From assembly GCA_027488395.1 (NCBI GenBank), contig JAIYBT010000006.1, positions 1 through 64,000 of the forward strand: DNA of 64,000 nt, in the 5' to 3' direction. Each line of letters begins with the position of its first letter. Position 1 is the first letter of the stretch. Below the pieces are notes generated by a model. It did no database searches. It had not been told where the DNA came from and worked only from the letters and a program-made list of their open reading frames with translations. Below are positions 2,286 through 64,000 of this stretch, in pieces. Both the position numbers and the translations under genes were made by a program. Source of the stretch: Methylophilaceae bacterium. GTDB taxonomy: Bacteria > Pseudomonadota > Gammaproteobacteria > Burkholderiales > Methylophilaceae.

Positions 2286-3827
2286 ATGCAAGTATTTAAA
2301 ATTAAATTAGCCAGCTTGGCCGCAATGTTGGTATTAGGGACACAAGCCAATATTGGCATGGCTGCTGAAGATGCGCAATATTGGTTAAACGATGGTGCCA
2401 ATGAAATTAATAACAGCAAAAAATTGGTTCCAAATGCGCGTAAAGCGAAAAACGTCATTTTGTTTGTAGGCGATGGCATGGGAATCTCTACCGTGACAGG
2501 CGCACGCATTTTTGAAGGTCAGCTCAAAGGCATTGACGGTGAGCGTAACAAATTATCTTTCGAAAATTTCCCATATGTAGCGTTATCAAAAACCTATTCT
2601 ACTAACCAGCAAACGGCGGATTCTGCACCGACGATGACAGCAATGATTGCTGGCGTAAAAACCAACGATGGCATTATTTCATTGAATCAATCTGTGGCAC
2701 GTAATGCAGCAGATCCAGCCGTGCTCAATGCCAATAAAGTCACGACATTATTGGAGCAAGCCGAAGTTGCAGGCAAATCGACAGGCGTGATTTCAACGGC
2801 ACGTATTACACACGCTACGCCAGCGGCGACTTATGCACATATTTCAAACCGTGACTGGGAAGCCAACGCAAACATGTCTGCAGCCGCACAGGCCAATGGC
2901 GTAAAAGATATCGCTGCACAGTTAGTTGATAACTTTGGCGCGGGTGGCATTGGTAACGGTATTGAAGTGGTGTTTGGTGGTGGTCGTAGCTACTTCTTGC
3001 CTAACTCTGTAACCGATATTGAAAACGCGAGAGGCCGCCGTACCGATGGCCGTAACTTGGCACAAGAATTCAGCACAAAGTTTGGTGCAACTTATGTACA
3101 AAACCAAGCCGAATTTAATGCGATTAACCCAGCCACGACCAACCGCGTTATTGGTTTATTCAATCCATCTCATATGGAATACGAACAAGACCGTCCAGCG
3201 GACATCGCAGGTGAGCCATCATTGGCAGAGATGACGGGTAAAGCGATTGATATTTTGAAAAAAAACCAAAATGGTTATTTCTTGATGGTGGAAGGCGGTC
3301 GGATTGACCATGCTTCACACGCAGGCAATGCGTATCGTACGTTTAAAGATACCGTCGCTTTGTCTGATGCGGTACGTGAAGCAATGTCTAAAGTGGATAT
3401 GAATGAGACATTAATTGTGGTGACGGCTGACCATAGCCATACCTTGACCATTGGTGGCTATCCAAAACGTGGTAACCCGATTTTAGGCAAAGTGGTGGAA
3501 GCAGGGCGCACTACACCTGCTGTTGCAGCGGATGGCAAACCTTACACCACCGTGACCTTTGCTAACGGTCCTGGCTACCATGTCAATTCACCAGGGGATG
3601 CGGTCTACGCAGAAGCCATCGCAGCAGGCCGTGTGGCGGATATGACCACCGTGGATACTGAAGATCCAAACTTCCACCAAGAGTCATTGATTCCATTGAG
3701 TTCAGAAACGCACGCAGGTGAAGAAGTGGCCATTTATGCAGCAGGTCCTAAAGCGTATCTGTTCCACGGTGTGCAAGAGCAAAGCTATATCTACCATGTG
3801 ATGAAAGATGCATTTGGCTTTAAATAA
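2286..3827 (+). CDS. phoA: Alkaline phosphatase (PhoA family)
   Basis: This periplasmic phosphomonoesterase hydrolyses phosphate esters to supply inorganic phosphate. The 513-residue product has a signal peptide (cut near AAEDA, residue 27) and the family motifs: metal-binding VGDGMG (Asp63), the nucleophile Ser113 in TADSAPTMTA, VEGGRIDHASHAG with Glu336, Asp341 and His345, TADHSHT with Asp382/His383, and ETHAGEE with His476. All the expected zinc/magnesium ligands seem present, so it should be active. AAGGATA precedes the ATG. It lies between a PEP-CTERM protein and a His-rich periplasmic protein, and a hairpin follows. I see no clear Pho box upstream, so phosphate control is not shown by the sequence. 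Confidence 0.93.
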   Translation: MQVFKIKLASLAAMLVLGTQANIGMAAEDAQYWLNDGANEINNSKKLVPNARKAKNVILFVGDGMGISTVTGARIFEGQLKGIDGERNKLSFENFPYVALSKTYSTNQQTADSAPTMTAMIAGVKTNDGIISLNQSVARNAADPAVLNANKVTTLLEQAEVAGKSTGVISTARITHATPAATYAHISNRDWEANANMSAAAQANGVKDIAAQLVDNFGAGGIGNGIEVVFGGGRSYFLPNSVTDIENARGRRTDGRNLAQEFSTKFGATYVQNQAEFNAINPATTNRVIGLFNPSHMEYEQDRPADIAGEPSLAEMTGKAIDILKKNQNGYFLMVEGGRIDHASHAGNAYRTFKDTVALSDAVREAMSKVDMNETLIVVTADHSHTLTIGGYPKRGNPILGKVVEAGRTTPAVAADGKPYTTVTFANGPGYHVNSPGDAVYAEAIAAGRVADMTTVDTEDPNFHQESLIPLSSETHAGEEVAIYAAGPKAYLFHGVQEQSYIYHVMKDAFGFK

Positions 3828-3852
3828 ATGCACTTAATGTCATCATAAGCTT

Positions 3853-3890
3853 GTCACACGGGGCAGATACTCTCTGCCCTGTGTCATTTT
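3853..3890 (+). terminator. Hairpin after phoA
   Basis: ACACGGGGCAG pairs with CTGCCCTGTGT (one G-U pair) and is followed by ATTTTG. The stem is strong but the T-run is short, and the next gene starts 15 bp later, so partial read-through into the downstream gene is likely. Confidence 0.65.
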
Positions 3891-3904
3891 GTAAGGATAC
3901 CTAA

Positions 3905-4648
3905 ATGTTTAGAGTGAATGTATTGGCGCTCATGGCGATCGGCCTTGCGCTGAGTAGCTTAGTCAGTCATGCGGAGTCGCTGTCTGCAAAATTTGAAACC
4001 ATCCAATGCGCGCAGCCGTGTACCCAACAAAAAGCGTCTACTTGGTGGTTGCTGCGTGATGCACAATCGGCTGAAATTCGCAGTGTGAATGCACGCGGAC
4101 AGTTGTCGAACCATAGCAGCGTATGGGAACGCCGCGCCCAAAACAAGCTGCATTACACCTATGTGATGCACGATGAAAAACGTGCAATTCAATATAGTGA
4201 TGTTGATTTGAATATTTTGGGATTACCGACAGATCAACGCGCATGGGAGCTTAAGCACCAGTTGATCACTAACGACGAATTAACACAACTCACCAAACGT
4301 AATGACGTACCCACCACCGTCATGGGCTACGCAATTGAACACTATCAAGGTCAATGGCAAGAAGGCACCAAGGTGGATGTGATGTGGATGCCTGCATTGC
4401 AACTGCCATATCGTGTCCGTTATGAGTATCCACAGCACACGGTAGAGTTACAGCTTCAGCAATTAGCACCTTCAAACACTGCAAAGGGCGAAGACATCCC
4501 CGTCAACAGTTCTGGCCTGCAACTGAGTCAATACCAGCTGGTTGATTACACCGATATTGGCGACATGGAACATAACCCCGATGATTTGGCTTGGATGGCA
4601 AAAGCAGTGGGTGCCCCCGGACTACATCATGATCATCATGCGCATTAG
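3905..4648 (+). CDS. Exported protein of unknown function with His-rich C-terminus
   Basis: The 247-residue protein starts with a signal peptide (residues 1-23, ending SHAES) and has a pair of cysteines early in the mature part (CAQPC), probably a disulfide. The middle is rich in Trp, Tyr and Gln without a motif I recognise. The last residues HHDHHAH form a histidine cluster that could bind a transition metal such as zinc. AAGGATA precedes the start, as for phoA, and the gene lies 77 bp after phoA behind a leaky-looking hairpin, so the two may act together; a role in metal supply to the zinc-dependent phosphatase is only a guess. Confidence 0.75.
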   Translation: MFRVNVLALMAIGLALSSLVSHAESLSAKFETIQCAQPCTQQKASTWWLLRDAQSAEIRSVNARGQLSNHSSVWERRAQNKLHYTYVMHDEKRAIQYSDVDLNILGLPTDQRAWELKHQLITNDELTQLTKRNDVPTTVMGYAIEHYQGQWQEGTKVDVMWMPALQLPYRVRYEYPQHTVELQLQQLAPSNTAKGEDIPVNSSGLQLSQYQLVDYTDIGDMEHNPDDLAWMAKAVGAPGLHHDHHAH

Positions 4649-16175: not shown

Positions 16176-16625
16176 TTGAAGTGCCCTTTTTGTGGCGCGG
16201 ACGACACCTTGGTGGCCGATTCGCGCTTAAACGATGAAGGCAATGCCATTCGGCGGCGCCGACGTTGTGCGGTGTGTGATAAACGCTTTACCACTTTTGA
16301 AACCGCTGAGTTGCATTTGCCGCAGATAGTGAAACAAAACGGCTCGCGAGAAGAATTTAAACGTGAAAAGTTGCGTTTGTCTTTTTCGCGTGCTTTGCAC
16401 AAACGGCCAGTCCCGACCGAATATGTCGATAAAGCACTCGATCATATCGTGCAAAAAATCTTAAGTTTAGGCGAGCGTGAAGTACCTGCGCGCTTTCTTG
16501 GCGAAAGCGTGATGCAAGCGTTAAAACAAATGGATCAAGTGGCTTATATTCGCTTTGCATCGGTCTACCGTAGCTTTTCGGATGTGGATGATTTTCACGA
16601 CGCCATCCGAGACCTTGACCGATAA
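16176..16625 (+). CDS. nrdR: Transcriptional repressor NrdR
   Basis: NrdR represses ribonucleotide reductase operons in response to dATP/ATP bound by its ATP-cone. The 149-residue protein has the N-terminal zinc ribbon with CPFC (residues 3-6) and CAVC (31-34), followed by the basic RRRRRC stretch that contacts DNA, and an ATP-cone from about residue 46 to 136 ([10 protein letters not shown]...). It starts with TTG three bases after the glyA stop. Its likely target is visible in this window: two NrdR boxes upstream of nrdA at 60828-60868. A terminator follows. Confidence 0.97.
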
Positions 16626-53492: not shown

Positions 53493-56400
53493 ATGAGCCG
53501 TTTTTTTATTGATCGCCCGATCTTTGCATGGGTGATTGCCATTTTGATGGCATTGGCAGGCTTGATTGCCATCAAGCAGTTACCGATTGCGCAATATCCT
53601 GATATTGCCCCGCCCGTCGTGAATATTGCAGCGACTTACCCTGGCGCTTCAGCAAAAGTGGTCGAAGAAACGGTGACATCGATCATCGAGCGTGAAATGA
53701 ATGGCATGCCCGGCCTCATGTATGTGTCTGCGACCAGCAATCAGGGCATGGCCTCCATCAGTGTCACCTTCCGTCAGGGCACCAACCCAGACTTGGCAGC
53801 CGTTGATGTACAAAATCGCCTCAAAAGTGTCGAAGTCCGTTTGCCTGAAATCGTGCGACGCAGTGGCATTACCGTGGAAAAATCCGCAGACAGTTTTCAG
53901 TTGATCGTCTCCCTGACTTCCGACGATCACCGTTACAGCGAAATTGATTTAGGCGAGTTAGCCGCTGCCACGGTAATGCCGACGCTGAAACGCGTGCAAG
54001 GCGTGGGCAAAGTGCAGTCGTTTAGCCCCGAATACGCCATGCGTATCTGGCCAGATCCTCAAAAAATGGCGGGCCTTCATGTCAGTGTCGGCGAACTATC
54101 CAATGCCTTACGTAGTTACAACGCACGCCTGACCCTTGGCCAAGTGGGGGCAAGCGGTGTACCTGATGGCTCGCCGCTGAGTGTTGCTCTAGAAACCGAA
54201 GCCACCCTGAAAACAGTCGAAGATTTTGCCAATGTACCGATACGTGTAATGGCGGATGGTGCTGCATTGTTGGTGAAAGACATTGCTCGTGTCGAGCTGG
54301 GTAGCAGCGACTATACCTATCGTTCCAAGGTCAATGGGAAAAACGCCGCTGGCATGGCGATTAAATTAGCACCGGGATCTAACGCAGTCGAAACCATACA
54401 ACGGGTGAAAGCGGCCATGGTGCAAATGCAGCCGTATTTCCCCCCCAATGTGACGTTTCAGCTGTCGTATGACGCGTCGGCGTTTGTGGCGATTTCAATC
54501 AAAAAAGTGGTGCAAACCCTTATTGAAGCGATGTTGCTGGTGTTTGTCGTGATGTACTTATTTATGCAAAATCTGCGCGCCACGTTGATTCCAACCGTGG
54601 TGGTGCCGATTGCCTTGTTGGGTACATTTGCGGTCATGTACGCCTTAGGCTACTCCATCAATGTGCTCACCATGTTTGGCATGGTGCTGGCCATTGGTAT
54701 TTTGGTGGATGATGCCATTGTCGTGGTCGAAAACGTCGAGCGATTGATGGGGGAGGCGGGGTTGTCCGCGTATGACGCAACGGTAAAAGCCATGTCGCAG
54801 ATCAGTGGTGCTGTGATCGGCATTACCGCGGTACTGGTGTCGGTATTTATTCCAATGGCAATGTTTAGTGGCGCAGTCGGCAATATTTACCGCCAATTTT
54901 CATTGGCGTTGACTGTATCCATTAGTTTTTCAGCCTTCTTAGCGTTGTCACTGACGCCTGCGCTGTGTGTGACGCTATTACGCCATGAGACTGGTCACAA
55001 AGCGCGCTTTTTTGTTTGGTTTAATCGCAGTGTGCAACGTATCACGGACCGTTACATGCAGGTCACCCGTGGCGTGCTCCACAAGCCCTTGCGTTGGTTG
55101 GCAGTGTTTATGTTGATTGTGACGGTAGTTGGCTGGTTATTGATCCGCTTACCAAGTGCATTTTTACCAGATGAAGATCAAGGTAACTTAATGGTCATGG
55201 TCTCGCTGCCACAAGGGGCAACCTTGGCAGAAACCGCAGATGTGCTTGGGCAGATGAGCCGTGATATTCAACAAACAGAACCCGTCGATATTATTTTTGA
55301 AATCAGTGGCTTTAGCTTTTACGGGACCAGCACGAATAGTGGCATGTTGTTTATTACATTGAAAGATTGGGCGGAGCGGCCAACCCATCAACAACAGGTA
55401 CAGGCGATTGTGGCACGCATCAATCAACAGTTTACTGGCCGGCCAAATGTGAGTACTTATGCCATGAATGCCCCGCCGTTACCTGAGCTGGGCAGCGTGG
55501 GTGGCTTTGATTTGAAATTAGTGGACAAGGCCAATGTGGGAAATGCGGCGTTAGCACAAGCGCGCGACCAACTGCTGGCGCAAGCCAATCGACAGCCAGC
55601 GCTCGCCAATGTCTTGTTTGCTGGTCTGTATGATACGCCTGTGGTGACCATGCAACTGCATCGCAGCAAAGCCAATGCGTTGGGCGTTTCCGTGGATGAA
55701 ATCAACGACACATTGGCCACCTTGCTCGGTTCTAACTATCTCGGTGATTTTGTCTATGGCAATCAAGTGCGTAGAGTATTGGTGCAAGCAGATGGCTCAC
55801 AACGGCAAACCTTGGAGGACTTACAAAAAATCCGTTTAAAAGTGGCCGACGGTCATTTGGTACCGTTAAGTTCGATCATGACGCTGGATTGGGGGATGGG
55901 CTCACCACAGCGCACACGGTTTAATGGGTTTCCTTCTTTTAATATCAATGGCGGCGCTGCACCTGGCTATAGCAGTGGCGATGCCATGCAAACAATGGAG
56001 CAGTTGGTGCAAGGCTTGGGACAAGGCATCGGCTTTGAATGGGCGGGACAATCCCTAGAAGAAAAGCAATCTGGCAGTCAAGCCATCCTGCTGTTTGGGT
56101 TGTCGATATTGATGGTATTTCTGGTATTGGCCGCACTGTATGAAAGCTGGGCGATCCCATTCGCAGTGATGTTGGTCGTGCCGCTGGGCGTATTGGGGGC
56201 GTTGCTGGCGGTGACCTTCCGCGGTTTACCCAATGATATTTATTTTAAAGTTGGTTTAATTGCAACCATAGGCTTATCTGCTAAAAACGCCATTTTGATC
56301 GTGGAGTTTGCCCGCGCGCAGGTGTTGCAAGGCATGTCGCTCCGCGAAGCCAGTTTATACGCAGCCAACGCGCGCTTGCGCCCAATTGTGATGACCTCGC

Positions 56401-56609
56401 TGGCGTTTGGTGTCGGTGTCATCCCATTGGCCTTTTCAAGCGGCGCTGCATCAGGGGCGCAAATCGCAATTGGTACCAGCGTGCTAGGCGGGATCATCAC
56501 CGCGACCGTGCTCGCGATCTTTTTTGTACCGTTATTTTTTATGATGATGGGGCGGTGGATCAAAAAACCAGTGACATCTGCAGGGAACGACCATGATGAT
56601 TCCATCTAG
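53493..56609 (+). CDS. acrB: RND multidrug efflux permease (AcrB/MexB type)
   Basis: The 1038-residue inner-membrane pump (HAE-1 family) exports drugs, dyes and solvents using the proton gradient. It shows the N-terminal SRFFIDRPIFAWVIAILMALAG, AQYPDIAPP, the proton-relay motif GILVDDAIVVVENVER in TM4, and a second copy region in TM10 (IGLSAKNAILIVEFAR). The size and 12-helix arrangement fit AcrB. The outer-membrane factor gene overlaps the 3' end by 17 bp. Confidence 0.96.
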   Translation: MSRFFIDRPIFAWVIAILMALAGLIAIKQLPIAQYPDIAPPVVNIAATYPGASAKVVEETVTSIIEREMNGMPGLMYVSATSNQGMASISVTFRQGTNPDLAAVDVQNRLKSVEVRLPEIVRRSGITVEKSADSFQLIVSLTSDDHRYSEIDLGELAAATVMPTLKRVQGVGKVQSFSPEYAMRIWPDPQKMAGLHVSVGELSNALRSYNARLTLGQVGASGVPDGSPLSVALETEATLKTVEDFANVPIRVMADGAALLVKDIARVELGSSDYTYRSKVNGKNAAGMAIKLAPGSNAVETIQRVKAAMVQMQPYFPPNVTFQLSYDASAFVAISIKKVVQTLIEAMLLVFVVMYLFMQNLRATLIPTVVVPIALLGTFAVMYALGYSINVLTMFGMVLAIGILVDDAIVVVENVERLMGEAGLSAYDATVKAMSQISGAVIGITAVLVSVFIPMAMFSGAVGNIYRQFSLALTVSISFSAFLALSLTPALCVTLLRHETGHKARFFVWFNRSVQRITDRYMQVTRGVLHKPLRWLAVFMLIVTVVGWLLIRLPSAFLPDEDQGNLMVMVSLPQGATLAETADVLGQMSRDIQQTEPVDIIFEISGFSFYGTSTNSGMLFITLKDWAERPTHQQQVQAIVARINQQFTGRPNVSTYAMNAPPLPELGSVGGFDLKLVDKANVGNAALAQARDQLLAQANRQPALANVLFAGLYDTPVVTMQLHRSKANALGVSVDEINDTLATLLGSNYLGDFVYGNQVRRVLVQADGSQRQTLEDLQKIRLKVADGHLVPLSSIMTLDWGMGSPQRTRFNGFPSFNINGGAAPGYSSGDAMQTMEQLVQGLGQGIGFEWAGQSLEEKQSGSQAILLFGLSILMVFLVLAALYESWAIPFAVMLVVPLGVLGALLAVTFRGLPNDIYFKVGLIATIGLSAKNAILIVEFARAQVLQGMSLREASLYAANARLRPIVMTSLAFGVGVIPLAFSSGAASGAQIAIGTSVLGGIITATVLAIFFVPLFFMMMGRWIKKPVTSAGNDHDDSI

Positions 56610-58002
56610 AAGCGCCAAACTGTTGACCATCATGCTGGCGATAGCGATCAATGGTTGCTCGCTGATGCCTGCGTATTTGCGTCCTAGCGCCCCTATCCCT
56701 GAAACTTACGCTAGCCTTGATGCTGACCCAACGCAATCTGTTAGTGAAACAGGTGTCGATGCCCCCCCTATGACTTGGCAAACCTATTTTGCCGATACCG
56801 ATGTACAACAGCTGATACAGATAGGCCTCACGCATAACCGTGACTTAAAAACGGCAGTCCTGCGTATCGAGGAAGCCAAAGCCCTCTACGGTATTCAACA
56901 AGCCGATCGCTTACCCACGCTACAAGGCACGCTCAACTACGACCGCAGCAAAACCGTGTTCAGCGCCGATCAAAGCTTTCGTGCCGAGTTGTTTCGGGTG
57001 GGGGTGGGCATTTCAGAATATGAAATTGACGTATTTGGACGTGTGAAAAGTTTGTCACAAGCTGCGCTTGAGCTTTACTTGGCCGAACAAGCACATCGGC
57101 AAACCGTGCAAACGCGATTAGTCACCGAAATTGTCACCCAATATGTCAATTATTTGGCCCTACATCAACAATCGACACTCGCCCAGCAAACCTTGGATGA
57201 ACGTAAACAAGCCCTCGCGCGGACGCAGCGTCGCTTTGAAGCGGGCGTAGATCAGGCGCTGGATGTGAAGGCTGCGCAGATTCAAGTCGAACAAGTACAA
57301 GCGCAACACGTGCAGTGGCAACGTCAACTGGCTGCGACGCAAAGTACGCTGTATTTGCTATTAGGTGAGCAGACCCAGCGTACGCCAATCCCCGTAAAAC
57401 CCCTGTCCGCGTTAACTTTGGCCGATATGCCGCCAGGCCTGCCTTCTAGTTTGCTGACACGCCGCCCCGATATTGTTGCCGCAGAGCATCAGCTCAAAGC
57501 CGCCAACGCAAATATTGGTGCGGCAAGAGCTGCATTTTATCCACGCCTACAACTGACCACCAATGGCGGTTTGGTGAATTCAGCATTGTCGAGGTTGTTT
57601 GCGGATAATGGCAGCAACTACTGGACCTTTAGCCCACAATTGACCATCCCGATTTTTAATGACGGTCGCAACAAAGCCAATTTAAATTTGGCCCAAACCC
57701 GCGAGCGCATCGAAATCACCAATTACGAAAAAACCATCCAAACTGCATTTAAAGAAGTCATGGATGGTTTAAACACGCGTCGCTTGATCGCCGAACAATT
57801 CGCTGCCACAGAACGTTTACGTATGCTTGAAGCCAGCCGTTTGCAATTGGTGAACCGCAAACTGGCGCAAGGCTTGGTGACGTATCTTGATCTGCTTGAT
57901 GCGCAACGTCATGTACTGGAGGCGCAATCGCAAAGCTTGCTGTTACAACAGCAGGCGTTGCAAAATCAAGTCCGCTTATTTCAAGCACTGGGGGGGCATT
58001 AA
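56593..58002 (+). CDS. RND efflux outer-membrane factor (OprM/NodT type)
   Basis: The 469-residue lipoprotein (lipobox INGC, about Cys22) is the TolC-like outer-membrane channel of the efflux system. Signature: duplicated helical halves, YEIDVFGRVKSLSQAALELYLA, RRFEAGVDQALDVKAAQ and RRPDIVAAEHQLKAANANIGAARAAFYPRL, plus LTIPIFNDGRNKANL. The start overlaps the acrB-like gene by 17 bp, so the three genes form one operon behind the TetR repressor. Confidence 0.95.
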   Translation: MMIPSRSAKLLTIMLAIAINGCSLMPAYLRPSAPIPETYASLDADPTQSVSETGVDAPPMTWQTYFADTDVQQLIQIGLTHNRDLKTAVLRIEEAKALYGIQQADRLPTLQGTLNYDRSKTVFSADQSFRAELFRVGVGISEYEIDVFGRVKSLSQAALELYLAEQAHRQTVQTRLVTEIVTQYVNYLALHQQSTLAQQTLDERKQALARTQRRFEAGVDQALDVKAAQIQVEQVQAQHVQWQRQLAATQSTLYLLLGEQTQRTPIPVKPLSALTLADMPPGLPSSLLTRRPDIVAAEHQLKAANANIGAARAAFYPRLQLTTNGGLVNSALSRLFADNGSNYWTFSPQLTIPIFNDGRNKANLNLAQTRERIEITNYEKTIQTAFKEVMDGLNTRRLIAEQFAATERLRMLEASRLQLVNRKLAQGLVTYLDLLDAQRHVLEAQSQSLLLQQQALQNQVRLFQALGGH

Positions 58003-58433: not shown

Positions 58434-58706
58434 ATGATTACTTTTGAGTTTGATAAGGCCAAAAGTCAGGCCAATTTGCATCAACATGGCATTCATTTTA
58501 TCGCCGCGCAGGCGCTATGGGATGATTGCCGTTTACTTAAAATTCCCGTGCACACGGAAGATGATCCGAGGTATTTGGTCATCGGGTTAATCAACGATCA
58601 ACACTGGTCTGCGCTGATGCAAGATAGCGGTTCTAATATCGAGCTAATTGCGGTTAGACGCTCACTTACAGAGGAGGTAGCACTTTATGAAAGCCAAATT
58701 TTTTGA
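58434..58706 (+). CDS. brnT: BrnT family ribonuclease toxin
   Basis: The 90-residue protein matches BrnT, the RelE-fold ribonuclease of a type II toxin-antitoxin system: MITFEFDKAKSQANLHQHGIHF, LWDD, TEDDPRYLVIG and IELIAVRRSLTEEVALYE. The conserved Arg residues and a final Tyr are present. The antitoxin start overlaps its end by 20 bp, the usual tight toxin-first arrangement of brnTA. It lies downstream of the efflux operon with no sign of a mobile element. Confidence 0.9.
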   Translation: MITFEFDKAKSQANLHQHGIHFIAAQALWDDCRLLKIPVHTEDDPRYLVIGLINDQHWSALMQDSGSNIELIAVRRSLTEEVALYESQIF

Positions 58707-59275: not shown

Positions 59276-60634
59276 ATGCAAAGTGAAATAAAAGCCCCCG
59301 TTATCCATGCCGTCGTGGCGGCCGTACAACTACCATCGGTCAGTGATATGGAGTTTGAATCCTCTCTCAACGAACTTCGCGAGTTGGCTAAAACCTTGGG
59401 CTACACGATCGTGCATACCTTTGTGCAAAAGCGCGCAGGCTTTGATATGACGGGCTATTTAGGCATTGGTAAGCGCGAGGAAATTCGCGCGTATGTACGC
59501 AGCCACGCTGTGGATGAAGCAGCGTTGGATGTCGATGCACTCAATATTGAGGCACTGTTGGTGGATCATGATATTTCACCGTCACAGGCGCGCAACCTCG
59601 AAATTGAAGTGGGTTGCGAAGTGATGGACCGCACCATGGTGATATTGGAGATTTTTCATCGTAATGCGCGCTCACGTGCGGCGCGGGCGCAGGTCGAGAT
59701 CGCCCGCTTGGGCTATATGGCGCCACGCTTGCGCGAGGCGGCCAAACTGGCAGGCCCGCAAGGGCGGCAACGCAGTGGCGCGGGTGGGCGCGGTGCAGGG
59801 GAATCGCACACCGAGCTGGATCGACGCAAGATTCGGGACCGCATTGCCGAGCTGCAGCAAGAGATTGTGATCATGGATGGCGAGCGCCGCACGCAACGTG
59901 CGCGGCGGCAGGAACGGCAGACGCTGGCTAATGTGGCGCTGGTGGGCTATACCAACGCTGGAAAATCGACGATGATGCGCGCACTCACTGGCAGCGAAGT
60001 GCTAGTCGCAAACAAACTGTTTGCGACGCTGGATACCACGGTGCGCGCCTTGCACCCAGAAAGCGTGCCACGCGTGTTGGTAAGTGATACCGTCGGTTTT
60101 ATTAAAAATCTGCCACATGGCTTGGTGGCTTCCTTTAAATCGACGCTCGATGAGGCGTTGGATGCGGCGCTGTTATTGCATGTGATTGATGCCAGCGATG
60201 CGGGGTTTGAGCGTCAGCTGGATGTTACTGATCAGGTGTTAGCGGAAATTGAGGCAGACACCGTGCCAAAAATTCGTGTGTTTAATAAAATTGATGACGT
60301 GGGTGATGCCGCAGCGCAAGCTGAATGTACCGCTGCGCTTAAGCGCAAATACCCTGATTGCATCGTCATGAGTGCACGACGGCCAGCGGAAGTGGCCGCT
60401 TTACGCCAAATCATTGTTGATTTTTTTCAACAAAATTTAGTAGTAGCTGAGCTGTTTTTGCCTTGGTCGGCGCAACAATTGCGCGGCAACCTCTACAACT
60501 CTTGTCAGGTACTGGAGGAACGTTCCGAAGAGGCAGGCACTGTGTTTACTCTACGGGGTGCCGCCAACGATATTCAACGGTTGCGTGATCAGCTAAGCCG
60601 ACCATCCTCCACACCCGCCGATAACGCCGACTAG
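59276..60634 (+). CDS. hflX: Ribosome-associated GTPase HflX
   Basis: HflX binds the 50S subunit and rescues or splits stalled ribosomes under stress. The 452-residue protein has its N-terminal HflX domain (residues 1-215, with GYLGIGKREEI and the glycine/Arg-rich GRQRSGAGGRGAGESHTELDRR linker) and a GTPase domain with GYTNAGKST (224-232), DTVGFI (271-276) and NKID (about 335). The C-terminal region contains NSCQVLEERSEEAG. It is not next to hfq or hflKC, its usual neighbours. A hairpin terminator follows. Confidence 0.94.
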   Translation: MQSEIKAPVIHAVVAAVQLPSVSDMEFESSLNELRELAKTLGYTIVHTFVQKRAGFDMTGYLGIGKREEIRAYVRSHAVDEAALDVDALNIEALLVDHDISPSQARNLEIEVGCEVMDRTMVILEIFHRNARSRAARAQVEIARLGYMAPRLREAAKLAGPQGRQRSGAGGRGAGESHTELDRRKIRDRIAELQQEIVIMDGERRTQRARRQERQTLANVALVGYTNAGKSTMMRALTGSEVLVANKLFATLDTTVRALHPESVPRVLVSDTVGFIKNLPHGLVASFKSTLDEALDAALLLHVIDASDAGFERQLDVTDQVLAEIEADTVPKIRVFNKIDDVGDAAAQAECTAALKRKYPDCIVMSARRPAEVAALRQIIVDFFQQNLVVAELFLPWSAQQLRGNLYNSCQVLEERSEEAGTVFTLRGAANDIQRLRDQLSRPSSTPADNAD

Positions 60635-60760: not shown

Positions 60761-60827
60761 CGTTGCATCAACACTAAAATACCTAAAATTTTTTTGCTTT
60801 GCTAACAATGACTTAAACAATCAATCG

Positions 60828-60868
60828 CAATATATTGTGTTTTTATTGTTGAAAAGCCATATATATTG
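60828..60868. promoter_or_regulatory. Tandem NrdR boxes upstream of nrdA
   Basis: CAATATATTG (60828-60837), flanked by CG and TGT, is a very good NrdR core (consensus CwATATATwG within acaCwAtATaTwGtgt). A second site, ATATATATTG (60859-60868), matches at nine of ten. The two are 31 bp apart, three helical turns, the normal geometry of NrdR site pairs. The promoter should overlap them. nrdR is at 16176-16625. Confidence 0.78.
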
Positions 60869-60886
60869 ATTTAAAGTGCGATTTCG

Positions 60887-61080
60887 TACGGTATACAGCG
60901 CCAGATCTGGCGCTGTATTTAAAAGGGAATTTGGTGCCTGTATTTGCAAAAAATACCAAGCCAAAGCTGCCCCCGCAACTGTAATCAGCGAGTTGTTCAC
61001 CCGTCATGTGCCACTGAAGCAATTTGGGAAGGCCTGTGTGAACAATATTGACCTGAGAGCCAGGAGACCTGCCGTAGTGA
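60887..61080 (+). ncRNA. Cobalamin (B12) riboswitch in the nrdAB leader
   Basis: The leader contains the conserved elements of the cobalamin riboswitch in order: GGGAAttTGGTGcc (60925 on), GCTGCCCCCGCAACTGTAA (60968 on), CCACTGAAG..., GGGAAGGC (61026 on) and the B12 box AGCCAGGAGACCTGCC (61058-61073). The 5' end carries a palindromic stem (60894-60917) that may be part of the P1/P2 region. It should turn down nrdAB when adenosylcobalamin is plentiful. The expression platform lies between 61074 and the nrdA start. Confidence 0.93.
60894..60917. repeat. 24-bp perfect palindrome at the riboswitch 5' end
   Basis: CAGCGCCAGA joins directly to its reverse complement TCTGGCGCTG, with one further matching base pair on each side. 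It gives a long hairpin within the leader RNA or a dyad site in DNA. It precedes the conserved riboswitch core. Confidence 0.85.
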
Positions 61081-61148
61081 TGTTTTTTTAACGTTTGAGG
61101 CGGGGTGTCCTCGGCAGATGTTGTGATGTGTGGCTTGGGTGTTCTATG

Positions 61149-61171
61149 CTCAACTGTGCATTGCAGTTGAG
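61149..61171 (+). promoter_or_regulatory. Hairpin in the riboswitch expression platform
   Basis: CTCAACTG-TGCATTG-CAGTTGAG forms a perfect 8-bp stem between the B12 box and the nrdA ribosome site (61239-61243). It lacks a T-run, so switching may work through translation or an alternative structure rather than a simple terminator. Confidence 0.5.
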
Positions 61172-61249
61172 ATGTTTCTATCACAGTGATGCACTGCGTT
61201 AGAAGTGTCTACGCCATGTAACCTTCGCTTCCATTTTTGGGAGCAATCA

Positions 61250-63529
61250 ATGTCTAAATATGCCAGCATGCAGGTCACCAAACGGGATGGCCGCACCGAA
61301 CCGATCAACCTTGATAAAATTCACCGCGTGCTCGATTGGGCCACGCTTGGCTTAAGCAATGTCTCGGTGTCGCAAGTTGAGTTGAGTTCACACATTCAAT
61401 TTTATGACGGTATCCGCACCGATGTTATTCATGAAACCATTATTAAATCTGCCGCGGATTTAATTTCGGAAGCCACGCCCGATTATCAATACGTGGCGGC
61501 ACGATTGGCGATTTTTCATTTACGCAAAATCGCTTTTGGCCAATTTGAGCCGCCATCCCTTTATGCACACGTGCAACGACTCACTGCCTTAGGTAAATAC
61601 GACGCGCATCTATTACAAGATTACACGCCAGCGGAATTTGAGCAGTTAAATGGTGTGCTAGATCACGGCCGCGATTTGCTATTTTCTTACGCGGCGGTGA
61701 AGCAGTTGGAAGGTAAGTATTTAGTGCAAAACCGCGTGACCAAACAAGTAGATGAAAGTCCGCAATTTTTGTATCTATTGGTGGCAATGTGTTTGTTTGC
61801 CAAGTACACCGGCCAAACCAGACTCGATTTGATCAAGCGTTTTTATGATGCGGTTTCCACTTTTAAAATTTCACTGCCTACCCCCATCATGGCCGGCGTA
61901 CGTACGCCCACCCGTCAATTTAGCTCCTGCGTGTTGATTGAGTGTGACGACAGTTTAGCCAGTATCAATGCCACCACCAGCGCCATTGTCAATTATGTGT
62001 CGCAACGCGCAGGCATTGGCATTAATGCAGGTCGCATACGCGCTTTGGGCAGTGCGATTCGCGGTGGCGAGGCACAACATACAGGGTGTTTACCCTTTTA
62101 TAAATTGTTTCAAGCGGCGGTAAAGTCTTGCTCACAAGGCGGTGTACGTGGTGGGGCGGCAACCTTGTTTTATCCACTCTGGCATTTAGAGGTGGAGTCG
62201 TTATTGGTGCTTAAAAATAACCGCGGTGTCGAAGAAAACCGCGTACGTCATTTGGATTACGGGGTACAAATCAATCGCTTGCTTTATCAACGCCTGATTC
62301 ATAGCGCGTCGATTACATTGTTTTCTCCGCATGAGGTGCCCGGCTTATACGATGCTTTTTTTGCCGATCAGGCCCAGTTTGAAGCGTTGTATGTGCAATA
62401 TGAAGCACAGCCTGACTTACGTAAAAAATGCATGCCAGCGGTGGAATTGTTTTCGCTGTTGATGCAAGAACGTGCAGGCACTGGGCGCATTTATATTCAA
62501 AACGTTGACCATTGCAATACACATAGCCCGTTTGATCCAAGCGTGGCGCCAATACGACAATCCAATCTTTGCATGGAAATCGCGCTACCCACCACCCCGC
62601 TCAATGCGCTTGATGACACGCAAGGTGAAATTGCCCTATGTACTTTGTCTGCGTTTAATTTAGGGGCATTGCAATCCTTAGATGAGTTGGAAGACTTGGC
62701 GGAATTGGTGGTGCGCGCCTTGGACGCGCTACTGGATTATCAGCATTATCCAGTGCCAGCGGCACGACGGGCTACTGATTTACGACGCGCTTTGGGCGTG
62801 GGAGTGATTAACTACGCCTACTTTTTAGCGAAACATGGTTGTGATTACAGTAGTGGCTCGGCCTTGCCACTCACCCATCGTACCTTCGAGGCTATTCAGT
62901 ATTACTTACTAAAAGCCTCATCCACCTTGGCCGAGGAGCTTGGTCCGTGTGGCGCGTTTCACCAAACAACCTACGCACAAGGCGTGTTGCCGATAGATAC
63001 CTACAAAAAAGAACTAGATCAACTGTGTTCAGAGCCGTTAGCCCTCGATTGGGAAGCCTTGCGGGTGCAAATTCAGCATACAGGCTTGCGTAACGCGACC
63101 TTGACCGCGCTTATGCCATCCGAAACCTCTAGTCAAATTGCCAACGCGACCAATGGCATCGAACCACCGCGCGGCTTGGTTTCGGTCAAGCAATCCAAAG
63201 ACGGGGTGTTGCGGCAAGTGGTGCCTGAGATAGAGCGGTTGGGTGCGCAGTATGAGTTGTTGTGGAACATGCCGAACAATGCCGGCTATTTAAATCTAGT
63301 CGGTGTGATGCAGAAGTTTGTTGATCAATCGATTTCTGCCAATACCAATTATGACCCTGCACGTTTCGAGGGTGGTCGCGTACCGATGAAGCAATTACTT
63401 AAAGATTTATTGCAAGCCTACAAACTCGGGATCAAAACCTTGTACTACCACAATACCCGCGATGGTGCGTCCGATGGCGGCGTAGAGGCCACAGACGATG
63501 GCTGCGCCAGTGGTGCGTGCAAAATTTAA
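61250..63529 (+). CDS. nrdA: Class Ia ribonucleotide reductase, alpha subunit
   Basis: NrdA reduces ribonucleoside diphosphates to deoxyribonucleotides using a radical from NrdB. From ATG 61250 (GGGAG 6 nt upstream) it is 759 residues, close to E. coli NrdA (761). It has an N-terminal ATP-cone (allosteric site), redox Cys227 and Cys464, radical Cys441 with Asn439 and Glu443 (SNLCMEIALPT) and the C-terminal CASGAC pair for re-reduction. It is oxygen-dependent and B12-independent. A longer GTG start at 61205 is rejected. nrdB follows after 100 bp; NrdR boxes and a B12 riboswitch precede it. Confidence 0.97.
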   Translation: MSKYASMQVTKRDGRTEPINLDKIHRVLDWATLGLSNVSVSQVELSSHIQFYDGIRTDVIHETIIKSAADLISEATPDYQYVAARLAIFHLRKIAFGQFEPPSLYAHVQRLTALGKYDAHLLQDYTPAEFEQLNGVLDHGRDLLFSYAAVKQLEGKYLVQNRVTKQVDESPQFLYLLVAMCLFAKYTGQTRLDLIKRFYDAVSTFKISLPTPIMAGVRTPTRQFSSCVLIECDDSLASINATTSAIVNYVSQRAGIGINAGRIRALGSAIRGGEAQHTGCLPFYKLFQAAVKSCSQGGVRGGAATLFYPLWHLEVESLLVLKNNRGVEENRVRHLDYGVQINRLLYQRLIHSASITLFSPHEVPGLYDAFFADQAQFEALYVQYEAQPDLRKKCMPAVELFSLLMQERAGTGRIYIQNVDHCNTHSPFDPSVAPIRQSNLCMEIALPTTPLNALDDTQGEIALCTLSAFNLGALQSLDELEDLAELVVRALDALLDYQHYPVPAARRATDLRRALGVGVINYAYFLAKHGCDYSSGSALPLTHRTFEAIQYYLLKASSTLAEELGPCGAFHQTTYAQGVLPIDTYKKELDQLCSEPLALDWEALRVQIQHTGLRNATLTALMPSETSSQIANATNGIEPPRGLVSVKQSKDGVLRQVVPEIERLGAQYELLWNMPNNAGYLNLVGVMQKFVDQSISANTNYDPARFEGGRVPMKQLLKDLLQAYKLGIKTLYYHNTRDGASDGGVEATDDGCASGACKI

Positions 63530-63629: not shown

Positions 63630-64000
63630 ATGGCCATGGCTTTTAGCATTTTTTCAACGGGGCAACACCAAGCCCTTACGCAACCGATGTTTTTTGGGCA
63701 ACCGGTGAATGTTGCGCGATATGACCAACAAAAATACCCAGTGTTTGAAAAACTGATTGAAAAACAACTGTCATTTTTTTGGCGGCCTGAAGAAATTGAT
63801 GTGTCGCAAGACCGTGCCGATTTTCAACAATTGCCGGCCCATGAACAGCATATTTTTATCAGCAATCTCAAATATCAAACCTTATTAGATTCGATCCAAG
63901 GGCGTAGCCCCAACTTGGCTTTTTTACCCTTGGTTTCATTGCCAGAGTTGGAAACATGGATGGAAACTTGGGCGTTTTCGGAGACCATACACTCACGCTC
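63630..64000 (+). CDS. nrdB: Class Ia ribonucleotide reductase, beta subunit (partial)
   Basis: The gene runs off the right edge after about 123 codons. The visible part ([78 protein letters not shown]) is very close to E. coli NrdB. It carries the start of the diiron-tyrosyl radical subunit; the first Asp/Glu metal ligands are in the visible part and the Tyr radical site (expected in the part beginning ETIHSRS) is at the boundary. GAAGGAACA precedes ATG 63630. It is cotranscribed with nrdA. Confidence 0.96.

What the first reader, a model, noticed from the sequence alone, without database searches (positions are those of the whole stretch)
60828..61250. nrdAB controlled by both NrdR boxes and a cobalamin riboswitch
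Two NrdR sites 31 bp apart are followed by a full B12 riboswitch and a class Ia, B12-independent reductase operon. This dual layout, known in Streptomyces-type nrdABS control, implies a second B12-dependent (class II NrdJ) enzyme elsewhere, with the class Ia enzyme repressed when B12 is available. Combining it with NrdR in a methylotroph betaproteobacterium is notable.
Basis: partly seen in the sequence, partly recalled or inferred. Interest (0 to 1): 0.75.

Follow-up and report, generated by a model that had tools for sequence, protein, structure and literature searches.

The report
B12 riboswitch guarding a backup reductase
In this methylotrophic bacterium the B12-free enzyme for making DNA building blocks sits behind both a repressor site and a vitamin-B12-sensing RNA switch, probably so that it is made mainly when B12 runs short; the arrangement is known from actinobacteria, and here it recurs across a bacterial family and seems to have outlived swaps of the gene it controls.

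Summary
A full cobalamin riboswitch (RF00174, 104.3 bits, E 5e-25) lies at 60872-61090. Two NrdR-box matches 31 bp apart abut its 5' side, and my scan found no other such pair in the window. nrdA-nrdB-ferredoxin follow. The predicted partners exist: nrdJ on another contig, behind its own box pair (32 bp), and nrdR in the window. In 150 genomes of the family, 52 show a class I large subunit; 51 of these have the riboswitch before it. The exception, G043 (99% complete), has no detectable nrdJ; its leader keeps NrdR boxes but only a decayed aptamer. The riboswitch precedes two distantly related class I types, at several loci beside metE, and one well-supported leader grouping crosses gene types, which suggests RNR genes were swapped beneath a retained leader. 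Likely mechanism: NrdR represses transcription when dNTPs suffice, and adenosylcobalamin binding lets a hairpin hide the Shine-Dalgarno. The translational step is inferred; for the window's own leader folding did not show the ON state. The layout is known from actinobacteria, so this is a new member of a known kind. Spread through this family, decay with nrdJ loss and gene swap seem unreported, but key older papers were not held.

The parts
60825..60840 (+). NrdR box 1 (TCGCAATATATTGTGT)
   Evidence: 20 of 22 weighted consensus points; consensus recalled
60856..60871 (+). NrdR box 2 (GCCATATATATTGATT), 31 bp downstream of box 1 and abutting the aptamer
   Evidence: 16 of 22 points; only pair with sum >=34 in the window; 0 with sum >=36 in 20 simulated windows
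60849..60877 (+). promoter-like TTGAAA-17-TAAAGT overlapped by box 2 (weak candidate; a second, 60808-60836, is overlapped by box 1)
   Evidence: consensus scan, 2 found in the region, 0.9 expected
60872..61090 (+). cobalamin riboswitch aptamer
   Evidence: RF00174, 104.3 bits, E 5e-25
60971..60976 (+). loop L5 element CCCCGC, predicted kissing partner of L13
   Evidence: read from sequence; role from recalled cobalamin-riboswitch structure
61097..61112 (+). regulatory hairpin P13/L13 GAGGCGGGGTGTCCTC; GCGGGG (61100-61105) complementary to L5
   Evidence: 16-mer found at <=1 mismatch in the riboswitch-bearing nrdA leaders held and, at <=2 mismatches, in no other locus then held; hairpin name recalled
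61149..61171 (+). hairpin followed by a weak T-run (terminator-like candidate)
   Evidence: 1 found in region, 0.7 expected in shuffles
61223..61231 (+). proposed anti-sequestor target CTTCGCTTC, complementary to GAGGCGGGG (61097-61105) with G-U pairs
   Evidence: duplex -13.5 kcal/mol; 7 of 100 shuffles as good for the window alone
61227..61244 (+). SD-sequestering hairpin GCTTCC...GGGAGC
   Evidence: P(SD paired) 1.00 in local fold, 0.87 with the arm shuffled
61250..63529 (+). nrdA, class Ia ribonucleotide reductase large subunit (759 aa)
   Evidence: NF006578 1444.8 bits
63630..64000 (+). nrdB, class Ia small subunit, cut by the window edge
   Evidence: NF006576 245.1 bits on the cut piece; full ORF L086:3630-4769, PF00268 171.8 bits
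16176..16616 (+). nrdR, the repressor gene
   Evidence: TIGR00244 187.5 bits, cut-off 124.65; Zn ribbon + ATP-cone

Best explanation
A two-input controller of the B12-independent backup reductase. At the promoter, NrdR bound to two boxes about three helical turns apart blocks transcription when dNTPs are plentiful; nrdJ has its own box pair, so NrdR tunes both enzymes. In the transcript, the aptamer senses adenosylcobalamin. When bound, its L5 loop holds the L13 loop (GCGGGG) by a kissing interaction, which leaves the pyrimidine-rich arm just before the Shine-Dalgarno (SD) free to pair with the SD, so NrdAB is not made and NrdJ carries dNTP synthesis. When B12 is scarce, L13 and the P13 5' arm pair with that same arm, the SD is exposed and NrdAB is made. 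SHOWN: the parts, their conservation, nrdJ and nrdR in the genome, and a decayed aptamer in the one nearly complete family genome with class I but no detectable nrdJ. INFERRED: the direction of control and the translational platform. My confidence of 0.8 is for the two-input B12-OFF logic; for the translational platform it is about 0.6.
For: Parts. nrdJ box pair at L088:8845 (16 of 22) and 8877 (21 of 22), 32 bp apart. Family survey of 150 genomes: class I large subunit over 290 bits in 52 (22 E. coli-type, 30 long type); riboswitch before it in 51 of 52 (own; 19 of 20; 9 of 9; 19 of 19; 3 of 3); NrdJ over cut-off in 50 of the 52. G043 lacks nrdJ in two searches, whereas the 5 other members of its genus in the sample have it; its leader keeps NrdR boxes (20 and 14 points, 32 bp) but has no B12-box or L5 CCCCGC match and no RF00174 match. 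Its L13 reads GCAAGG instead of GCGGGG: kissing energy with CCCCGC goes from -11.6 to -1.1, while it pairs with its own pre-SD arm at -16.4 (canonical L13 on that arm -15.3). Box pairs 31-32 bp apart with box 1 at -45 to -49 from the aptamer: 28 of 32 leaders (three of the 32 are named loci that look like copies of others); by a score-and-place rule 19 of 22 more, where 17 non-nrd riboswitch leaders reached 22-27 points against 30-38. L13 arm with the 30 nt before the SD: mean -14.8 in 21 E. coli-type leaders against -8.8 elsewhere in the leader and -11.4 shuffled; -12.9 in 29 long-type against -9.3 and -9.1. Blocking L13 lowers SD accessibility by >0.2 in 9 of 22 E. coli-type leaders (L107 among them; other stretches blocked: 0 of 22) and 7 of 29 long-type (3 of 29). 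P. acnes precedent: PMC3848588, passages.
Against: In the window's own leader the SD hairpin is predicted always formed (SD unpaired 0.00 free and 0.00 blocked); others such as L102, L117, L118, L123 show no switch, and L101, L103, L126 move the wrong way. Several positives are near-copies (L124/L125; L144/L147/L149). L13 is nearly invariant because it must also match L5, so covariation support is one-sided. Shuffles of the pyrimidine-rich arm pair as well in 27-69 of 100 for L101, L102, L103, L117, L118, L122 and 28-42 of 100 for L144, L147, L149; the target beats or equals every other 30-nt stretch of its leader in only 17 of 21 and 17 of 29. The U-rich arm of L107 is shared by L122, which has an aptamer, so L107's L13 change strengthens pairing rather than following a change in the arm. 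The nrdJ-loss case is one genome, and the metE copy at the same site is truncated too, so local decay for another reason is possible. G064 (74% complete) has the riboswitch without an NrdJ over cut-off. A terminator-like hairpin exists at 61149-61171. No metE was found in the window's own genome (91.67% complete) although metH is there, so B12 may be needed for methionine in any case.
Confidence: 0.8

Rival explanations
1. Same two-input logic, but the riboswitch acts on transcription: with adenosylcobalamin bound, the leader transcript ends before nrdA, at the hairpin at 61149-61171 or by Rho.
For: One terminator-like site in the right place. P. [quoted passage not shown] Streptomyces control is called transcriptional in the title of Borovok et al. 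2006, seen in reference lists only.
Against: The site is at chance level (1 found, 0.7 expected) and its T-run is weak. The SD is paired at mean P 0.91 against 0.76 with shuffled arms in 22 E. coli-type leaders (0.70 against 0.63 in 29 long-type).
Confidence: 0.25
2. The riboswitch is an inherited relic with little present function; NrdR alone does the work.
For: In the order sample 37 of 72 non-family genomes hold two or more PF02867 genes, and only G189 of them has a riboswitch next to class I, so two enzymes do not require the switch. Family members share ancestry.
Against: The aptamer scores over cut-off in 51 of 52 genomes, across two distantly related genes, and is decayed where nrdJ is missing.
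Confidence: 0.07
3. The riboswitch serves something other than the class II/class I choice, for example coupling to methionine synthesis because metE often lies upstream.
For: metE lies upstream in the same orientation, within the DNA held, at 6 of 22 E. coli-type loci (one truncated) and 17 of 30 long-type loci.
Against: The aptamer lies downstream of metE and directly before nrdA; in the window hflX, not metE, is upstream, and no metE was found in the genome.
Confidence: 0.03

Closest known systems
Streptomyces nrdABS B12 riboswitch with NrdR control
   Same: class Ia operon behind a cobalamin riboswitch in a genome that also has adenosylcobalamin-dependent NrdJ (PMC4991794 passages; NrdR part recalled)
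   Different: actinobacterium; control described as transcriptional; here E. coli-type NrdA with a ferredoxin, and a platform that looks translational
Propionibacterium acnes nrdAB (nrd-box + cobalamin riboswitch) with nrdRJ
   Same: both inputs on one nrdAB promoter and leader, NrdJ elsewhere (PMC3848588 passages)
   Different: single nrd-box at nrdAB there, a pair 31 bp apart here; nrdDG leader also annotated with a riboswitch there; apparent transcript termination there
Pseudomonas aeruginosa NrdR boxes on nrdA, nrdJ and nrdD
   Same: two NrdR boxes on each RNR promoter (PMC4409342 passages)
   Different: its nrd response to B12 is reported as independent of B12-riboswitch regulation (PMC5962746 passages)
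Chlorobium nrdD cobalamin riboswitch
   Same: a B12-independent RNR behind a cobalamin riboswitch, described as mainly translational in Chlorobi (PMC8620254 passages)
   Different: class III nrdD, another phylum; NrdR boxes not mentioned in the passages
Second cobalamin riboswitch of the same genome (C20:8306-8521)
   Same: RF00174, 106.6 bits; L13-like GCGGGG
   Different: precedes a TonB receptor and a run of genes with CobU; no NrdR pair; on the other side of a 100/100 branch in the aptamer tree

Membership tests
Cobalamin riboswitch (RF00174) | match to the covariance model above gathering score | tested here: met
   104.3 against 31.5 bits, model 1-189
Cobalamin riboswitch (RF00174) | L5-L13 kissing complementarity | tested here: met
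   CCCCGC at 60971 and GCGGGG at 61100 fully complementary, -11.6 kcal/mol; sequence test only
Cobalamin riboswitch (RF00174) | binds adenosylcobalamin and changes expression | not testable with these tools
   needs probing or a reporter
NrdR regulon | nrdR gene present | tested here: met
   TIGR00244 187.5 bits at 16176-16616
NrdR regulon | paired boxes about three turns apart at the RNR promoter | tested here: met
   60825 and 60856; nrdJ pair 32 bp apart
NrdR regulon | NrdR binding and repression | not testable with these tools
   no binding or expression data
B12-riboswitch-controlled class Ia RNR with class II partner (Streptomyces type) | class Ia operon directly behind the riboswitch | tested here: met
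   NF006578 1444.8 bits, start codon about 160 bp after the aptamer
B12-riboswitch-controlled class Ia RNR with class II partner (Streptomyces type) | adenosylcobalamin-dependent NrdJ in the genome | tested here: met
   TIGR02504 570.8 bits, C1
B12-riboswitch-controlled class Ia RNR with class II partner (Streptomyces type) | transcriptional attenuation of the leader | tested here: inconclusive
   one weak terminator-like site at chance level

The most novel reading that the evidence does not exclude
The NrdR-box/riboswitch leader is a locus-bound controller that outlives the enzyme it controls: two distantly related class I reductases have replaced one another beneath the same leader, often beside metE, and when NrdJ was lost in G043 the switch was not deleted but converted, the aptamer decaying while L13 changed to fit the pre-SD arm better than L5, locking the message ON.
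Probability: 0.4. Interest if true: 0.65.

Novelty: new member of a known kind. Interest (0 to 1): 0.45.

Why it matters
It extends a control logic described in actinobacteria to a betaproteobacterial family and offers a natural experiment: species with both enzymes keep the switch, and one without NrdJ shows a decayed one. That makes two questions testable in laboratory methylotrophs: what becomes of a riboswitch once its partner enzyme is gone, and whether regulatory leaders stay at a locus while the genes beneath are exchanged.

Tried and rejected
Single NrdR-like boxes as evidence: rejected, 10 of >=17 points in the window against 6.65 expected; only the pair is informative. Idea that two RNR classes force a riboswitch: rejected at order level. 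Idea that metE synteny is universal: rejected; a MetE match lay upstream within the DNA held at 6 of 22 and 17 of 30 loci (flanks were short, about 1.5 kb at many), and L180 had metE about 8 kb off and L184 on the other side. Proof of the switch by folding the window's own leader: failed. Terminator at 61149: at chance level. Calling L107's L13 change compensatory: dropped on checking, since the same arm occurs in L122 with canonical L13; I lowered the novel-case probability from 0.45 to 0.4 for this. Literature: Rodionov et al. 2003, Borovok et al. 2006, Vitreschak et al. 2003 and Nahvi et al. 2004 are not held; my recollection that the first already lists B12 elements before B12-independent RNR genes could not be checked. 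Ten text searches listed no paper whose title names nrdA riboswitches in betaproteobacteria. Of the listed papers I saw passages of twelve. A Methylophilaceae paper among them, PMC9004378, reports one cobalamin riboswitch, before btuB, in an OM43 strain; a genome paper on Cupriavidus metallidurans, PMC2864759, names nrdAB, nrdJ and NrdR without an nrd riboswitch in the passages. A further riboswitch survey, PMC2258182, has no hit for nrd or ribonucleotide reductase in its main text.
Full report
WHAT IS THERE. The window ends in a class Ia ribonucleotide reductase operon. cmscan of the whole window finds one Rfam match above gathering score, the cobalamin riboswitch RF00174 at 60872-61090 on the + strand, 104.3 bits, full length. 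nrdA starts at 61250 (NF006578, 1444.8 bits) and nrdB at 63630; beyond the window edge nrdB ends and a 2Fe-2S ferredoxin ORF overlaps its end. Upstream, two NrdR-box matches 31 bp apart end where the riboswitch begins. Against a recalled consensus they score 20 and 16 of 22; in my scan they are the only such pair in the window, and none with sum >=36 came up in 20 simulated windows.

PARTNERS IN THE GENOME. It is there: contig C1, 721 aa, TIGR02504 570.8 bits, followed by a 242-aa ORF matching the C-terminal part of a class II model. Its upstream region carries an NrdR-box pair 32 bp apart, 16 and 21 points, and the 4,650 bases of that locus hold no Rfam match over gathering score. nrdR itself is at 16176-16616. 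A second cobalamin riboswitch precedes a TonB-receptor gene followed by a nitroreductase-family protein, a periplasmic binding protein and CobU. metH is present; metE was not found, in a genome 91.67% complete.

RELATIVES. The genome's genus group contains G075, whose leader is identical over the printed stretch to that of Methylophilus methylotrophus DSM 46235 (L101 and L005). In 150 genomes drawn from the family, 52 have a class I large subunit over 290 bits: 22 of the E. coli type and 30 of a longer type, with open frames of 937-1068 aa (fragments in incomplete genomes would be missed). The riboswitch stands before it in 21 of 22 and 30 of 30. NrdJ is over its cut-off in 50 of the 52; the two without are G043 (99% complete) and G064 (74% complete). 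Thus 50 of 50 genomes with both enzymes have the riboswitch; relatedness means these are not independent events.

THE EXCEPTION. G043 has the E. coli-type nrdA, no NrdJ in two searches, and no RF00174 match before nrdA, although it keeps two other cobalamin riboswitches. The five other members of its genus in the sample have nrdJ. Its leader is a remnant: NrdR boxes at 32 bp (20 and 14 points), a recognisable 5' P1 strand and the P13 region remain, but the B12 box and L5 are gone. L13 has changed so that it no longer matches L5, yet it pairs with the arm before the Shine-Dalgarno (SD) at -16.4 kcal/mol, 1.1 better than canonical L13 would, with pairing probability 1.00. This is what one expects if a B12 OFF-switch became harmful once NrdJ was lost. 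It is one genome; the metE copy at the same site is truncated as well, and the U-rich arm also occurs in L122, which has an aptamer.

HOW IT PROBABLY WORKS. The riboswitch-bearing nrdA leaders held have, after the aptamer, the hairpin GAGGCGGGGTGTCCTC at <=1 mismatch, and no other locus then held had it at <=2. Its loop is complementary to L5. The same strand is complementary to the pyrimidine arm just before the SD, and that arm is also complementary to the SD. So three pairings compete: L5-L13 (bound), L13-arm (unbound), arm-SD (bound). Across leaders the L13-arm pairing is on average stronger than elsewhere in the leader and than shuffles, and forcing L13 unpaired hides the SD by >0.2 in 9 of 22 E. 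coli-type leaders, L107 included (control 0 of 22), and 7 of 29 long-type (control 3 of 29). For the window's own leader the computation shows the SD hidden in both cases, so the ON state there would need co-transcriptional folding or a helper; this is the weakest step.

THE LEADER OUTLIVES THE GENE. An aptamer tree of 67 rows puts nrd leaders of both gene types, with seven other riboswitches of genus g11, on one side of a 100/100 branch, away from 11 others. Within it leaders do not sort cleanly by gene type: the E. coli-type leader L120 groups with three long-type leaders at 99/98; the other mixing rests on weak forks, and several branches are long. The order metR-metE-leader-nrdA (metR named by eye) is seen with E. 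coli-type genes (L179, L181) and long-type genes (L150, L151, L182, L183, L185), and in G189 of another family (L178): 8 of 13 distinct loci compared. L153 has an extra ORF between, L154 a truncated metE, and the window, L180 and L184 differ. I read this as exchange of reductase genes beneath a retained leader, at moderate confidence.

BREADTH. In 75 genomes of the order (75 of 75 with PF02867), only the three family members and G189 have RF00174 just upstream of class I, while 37 of the 72 others hold two or more PF02867 genes, G189 among them (adjacency and gene counts read off the tables by eye, split genes G167 and G210 left out, stricter filters may miss weak riboswitches, second genes not typed). 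G189's leader has NrdR boxes 31 bp apart (21 and 17 points) and a P13 of the same kind. Corticimicrobacter populi and an Alcaligenaceae strain, with 81% identical NrdA, have no RF00174 match in the loci held.

KNOWN OR NEW. The dual layout is known in actinobacteria: P. acnes (PMC3848588, passages) and Streptomyces (PMC4991794, passages; original paper not held). Sequence-level membership tests are met except attenuation, which is inconclusive; binding and expression could not be tested. I file it as a new member of a known kind. What seems new, within ten text searches and with several key older papers not held, is its spread through this methylotroph family, the decay with nrdJ loss, and the gene exchange under the leader.

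Noticed in passing
L007:3431-3841 and L114:3937-4347: The nrdA riboswitch of Methylobacillus arboreus (and G010) is interrupted by about 190 nt with long inverted ends (GTGGCTAACAAAACTC...GAGTTTTGTTAGCCAC), which looks like a small mobile element inserted in one arm; the score falls to 61.3 bits.
   Followed up: partly
L089, L090, L092, L093, L094, L162, L163: Seven riboswitches of genus g11 nest among nrd leaders in the tree and several show an nrd-like P13; in the two I looked at, L089 and L163, a TonB-dependent-receptor-like ORF follows. Possibly nrd leaders co-opted for uptake genes.
   Followed up: partly
L002:1183-3348 and 3509-4237: NrdJ appears split: a 721-aa main protein and a separate 242-aa ORF matching positions 575-759 of NF006417, reminiscent of the split class II enzyme of P. 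aeruginosa (PMC4520616, search listing only).
   Followed up: partly
window 59276-60634 and L153: In the window hflX lies directly before the nrd leader; in congener G019 a LysR-type gene, metE and an outer-membrane-protein-like ORF lie between hflX and the leader, so the window's lineage seems to have lost or moved them, or G019's gained them.
   Followed up: partly
L122 (G071): E. coli-type nrdA is matched in two pieces with one TGA inside; either an assembly error or a broken gene.
   Followed up: no
window 58434-58706: A 90-aa ORF that by eye resembles BrnT-type toxin proteins of toxin-antitoxin pairs; no family search made.
   Followed up: no
window 53493-58002: Two adjacent ORFs that by eye look like an RND efflux pump and its outer-membrane lipoprotein; no family search made.
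   Followed up: no
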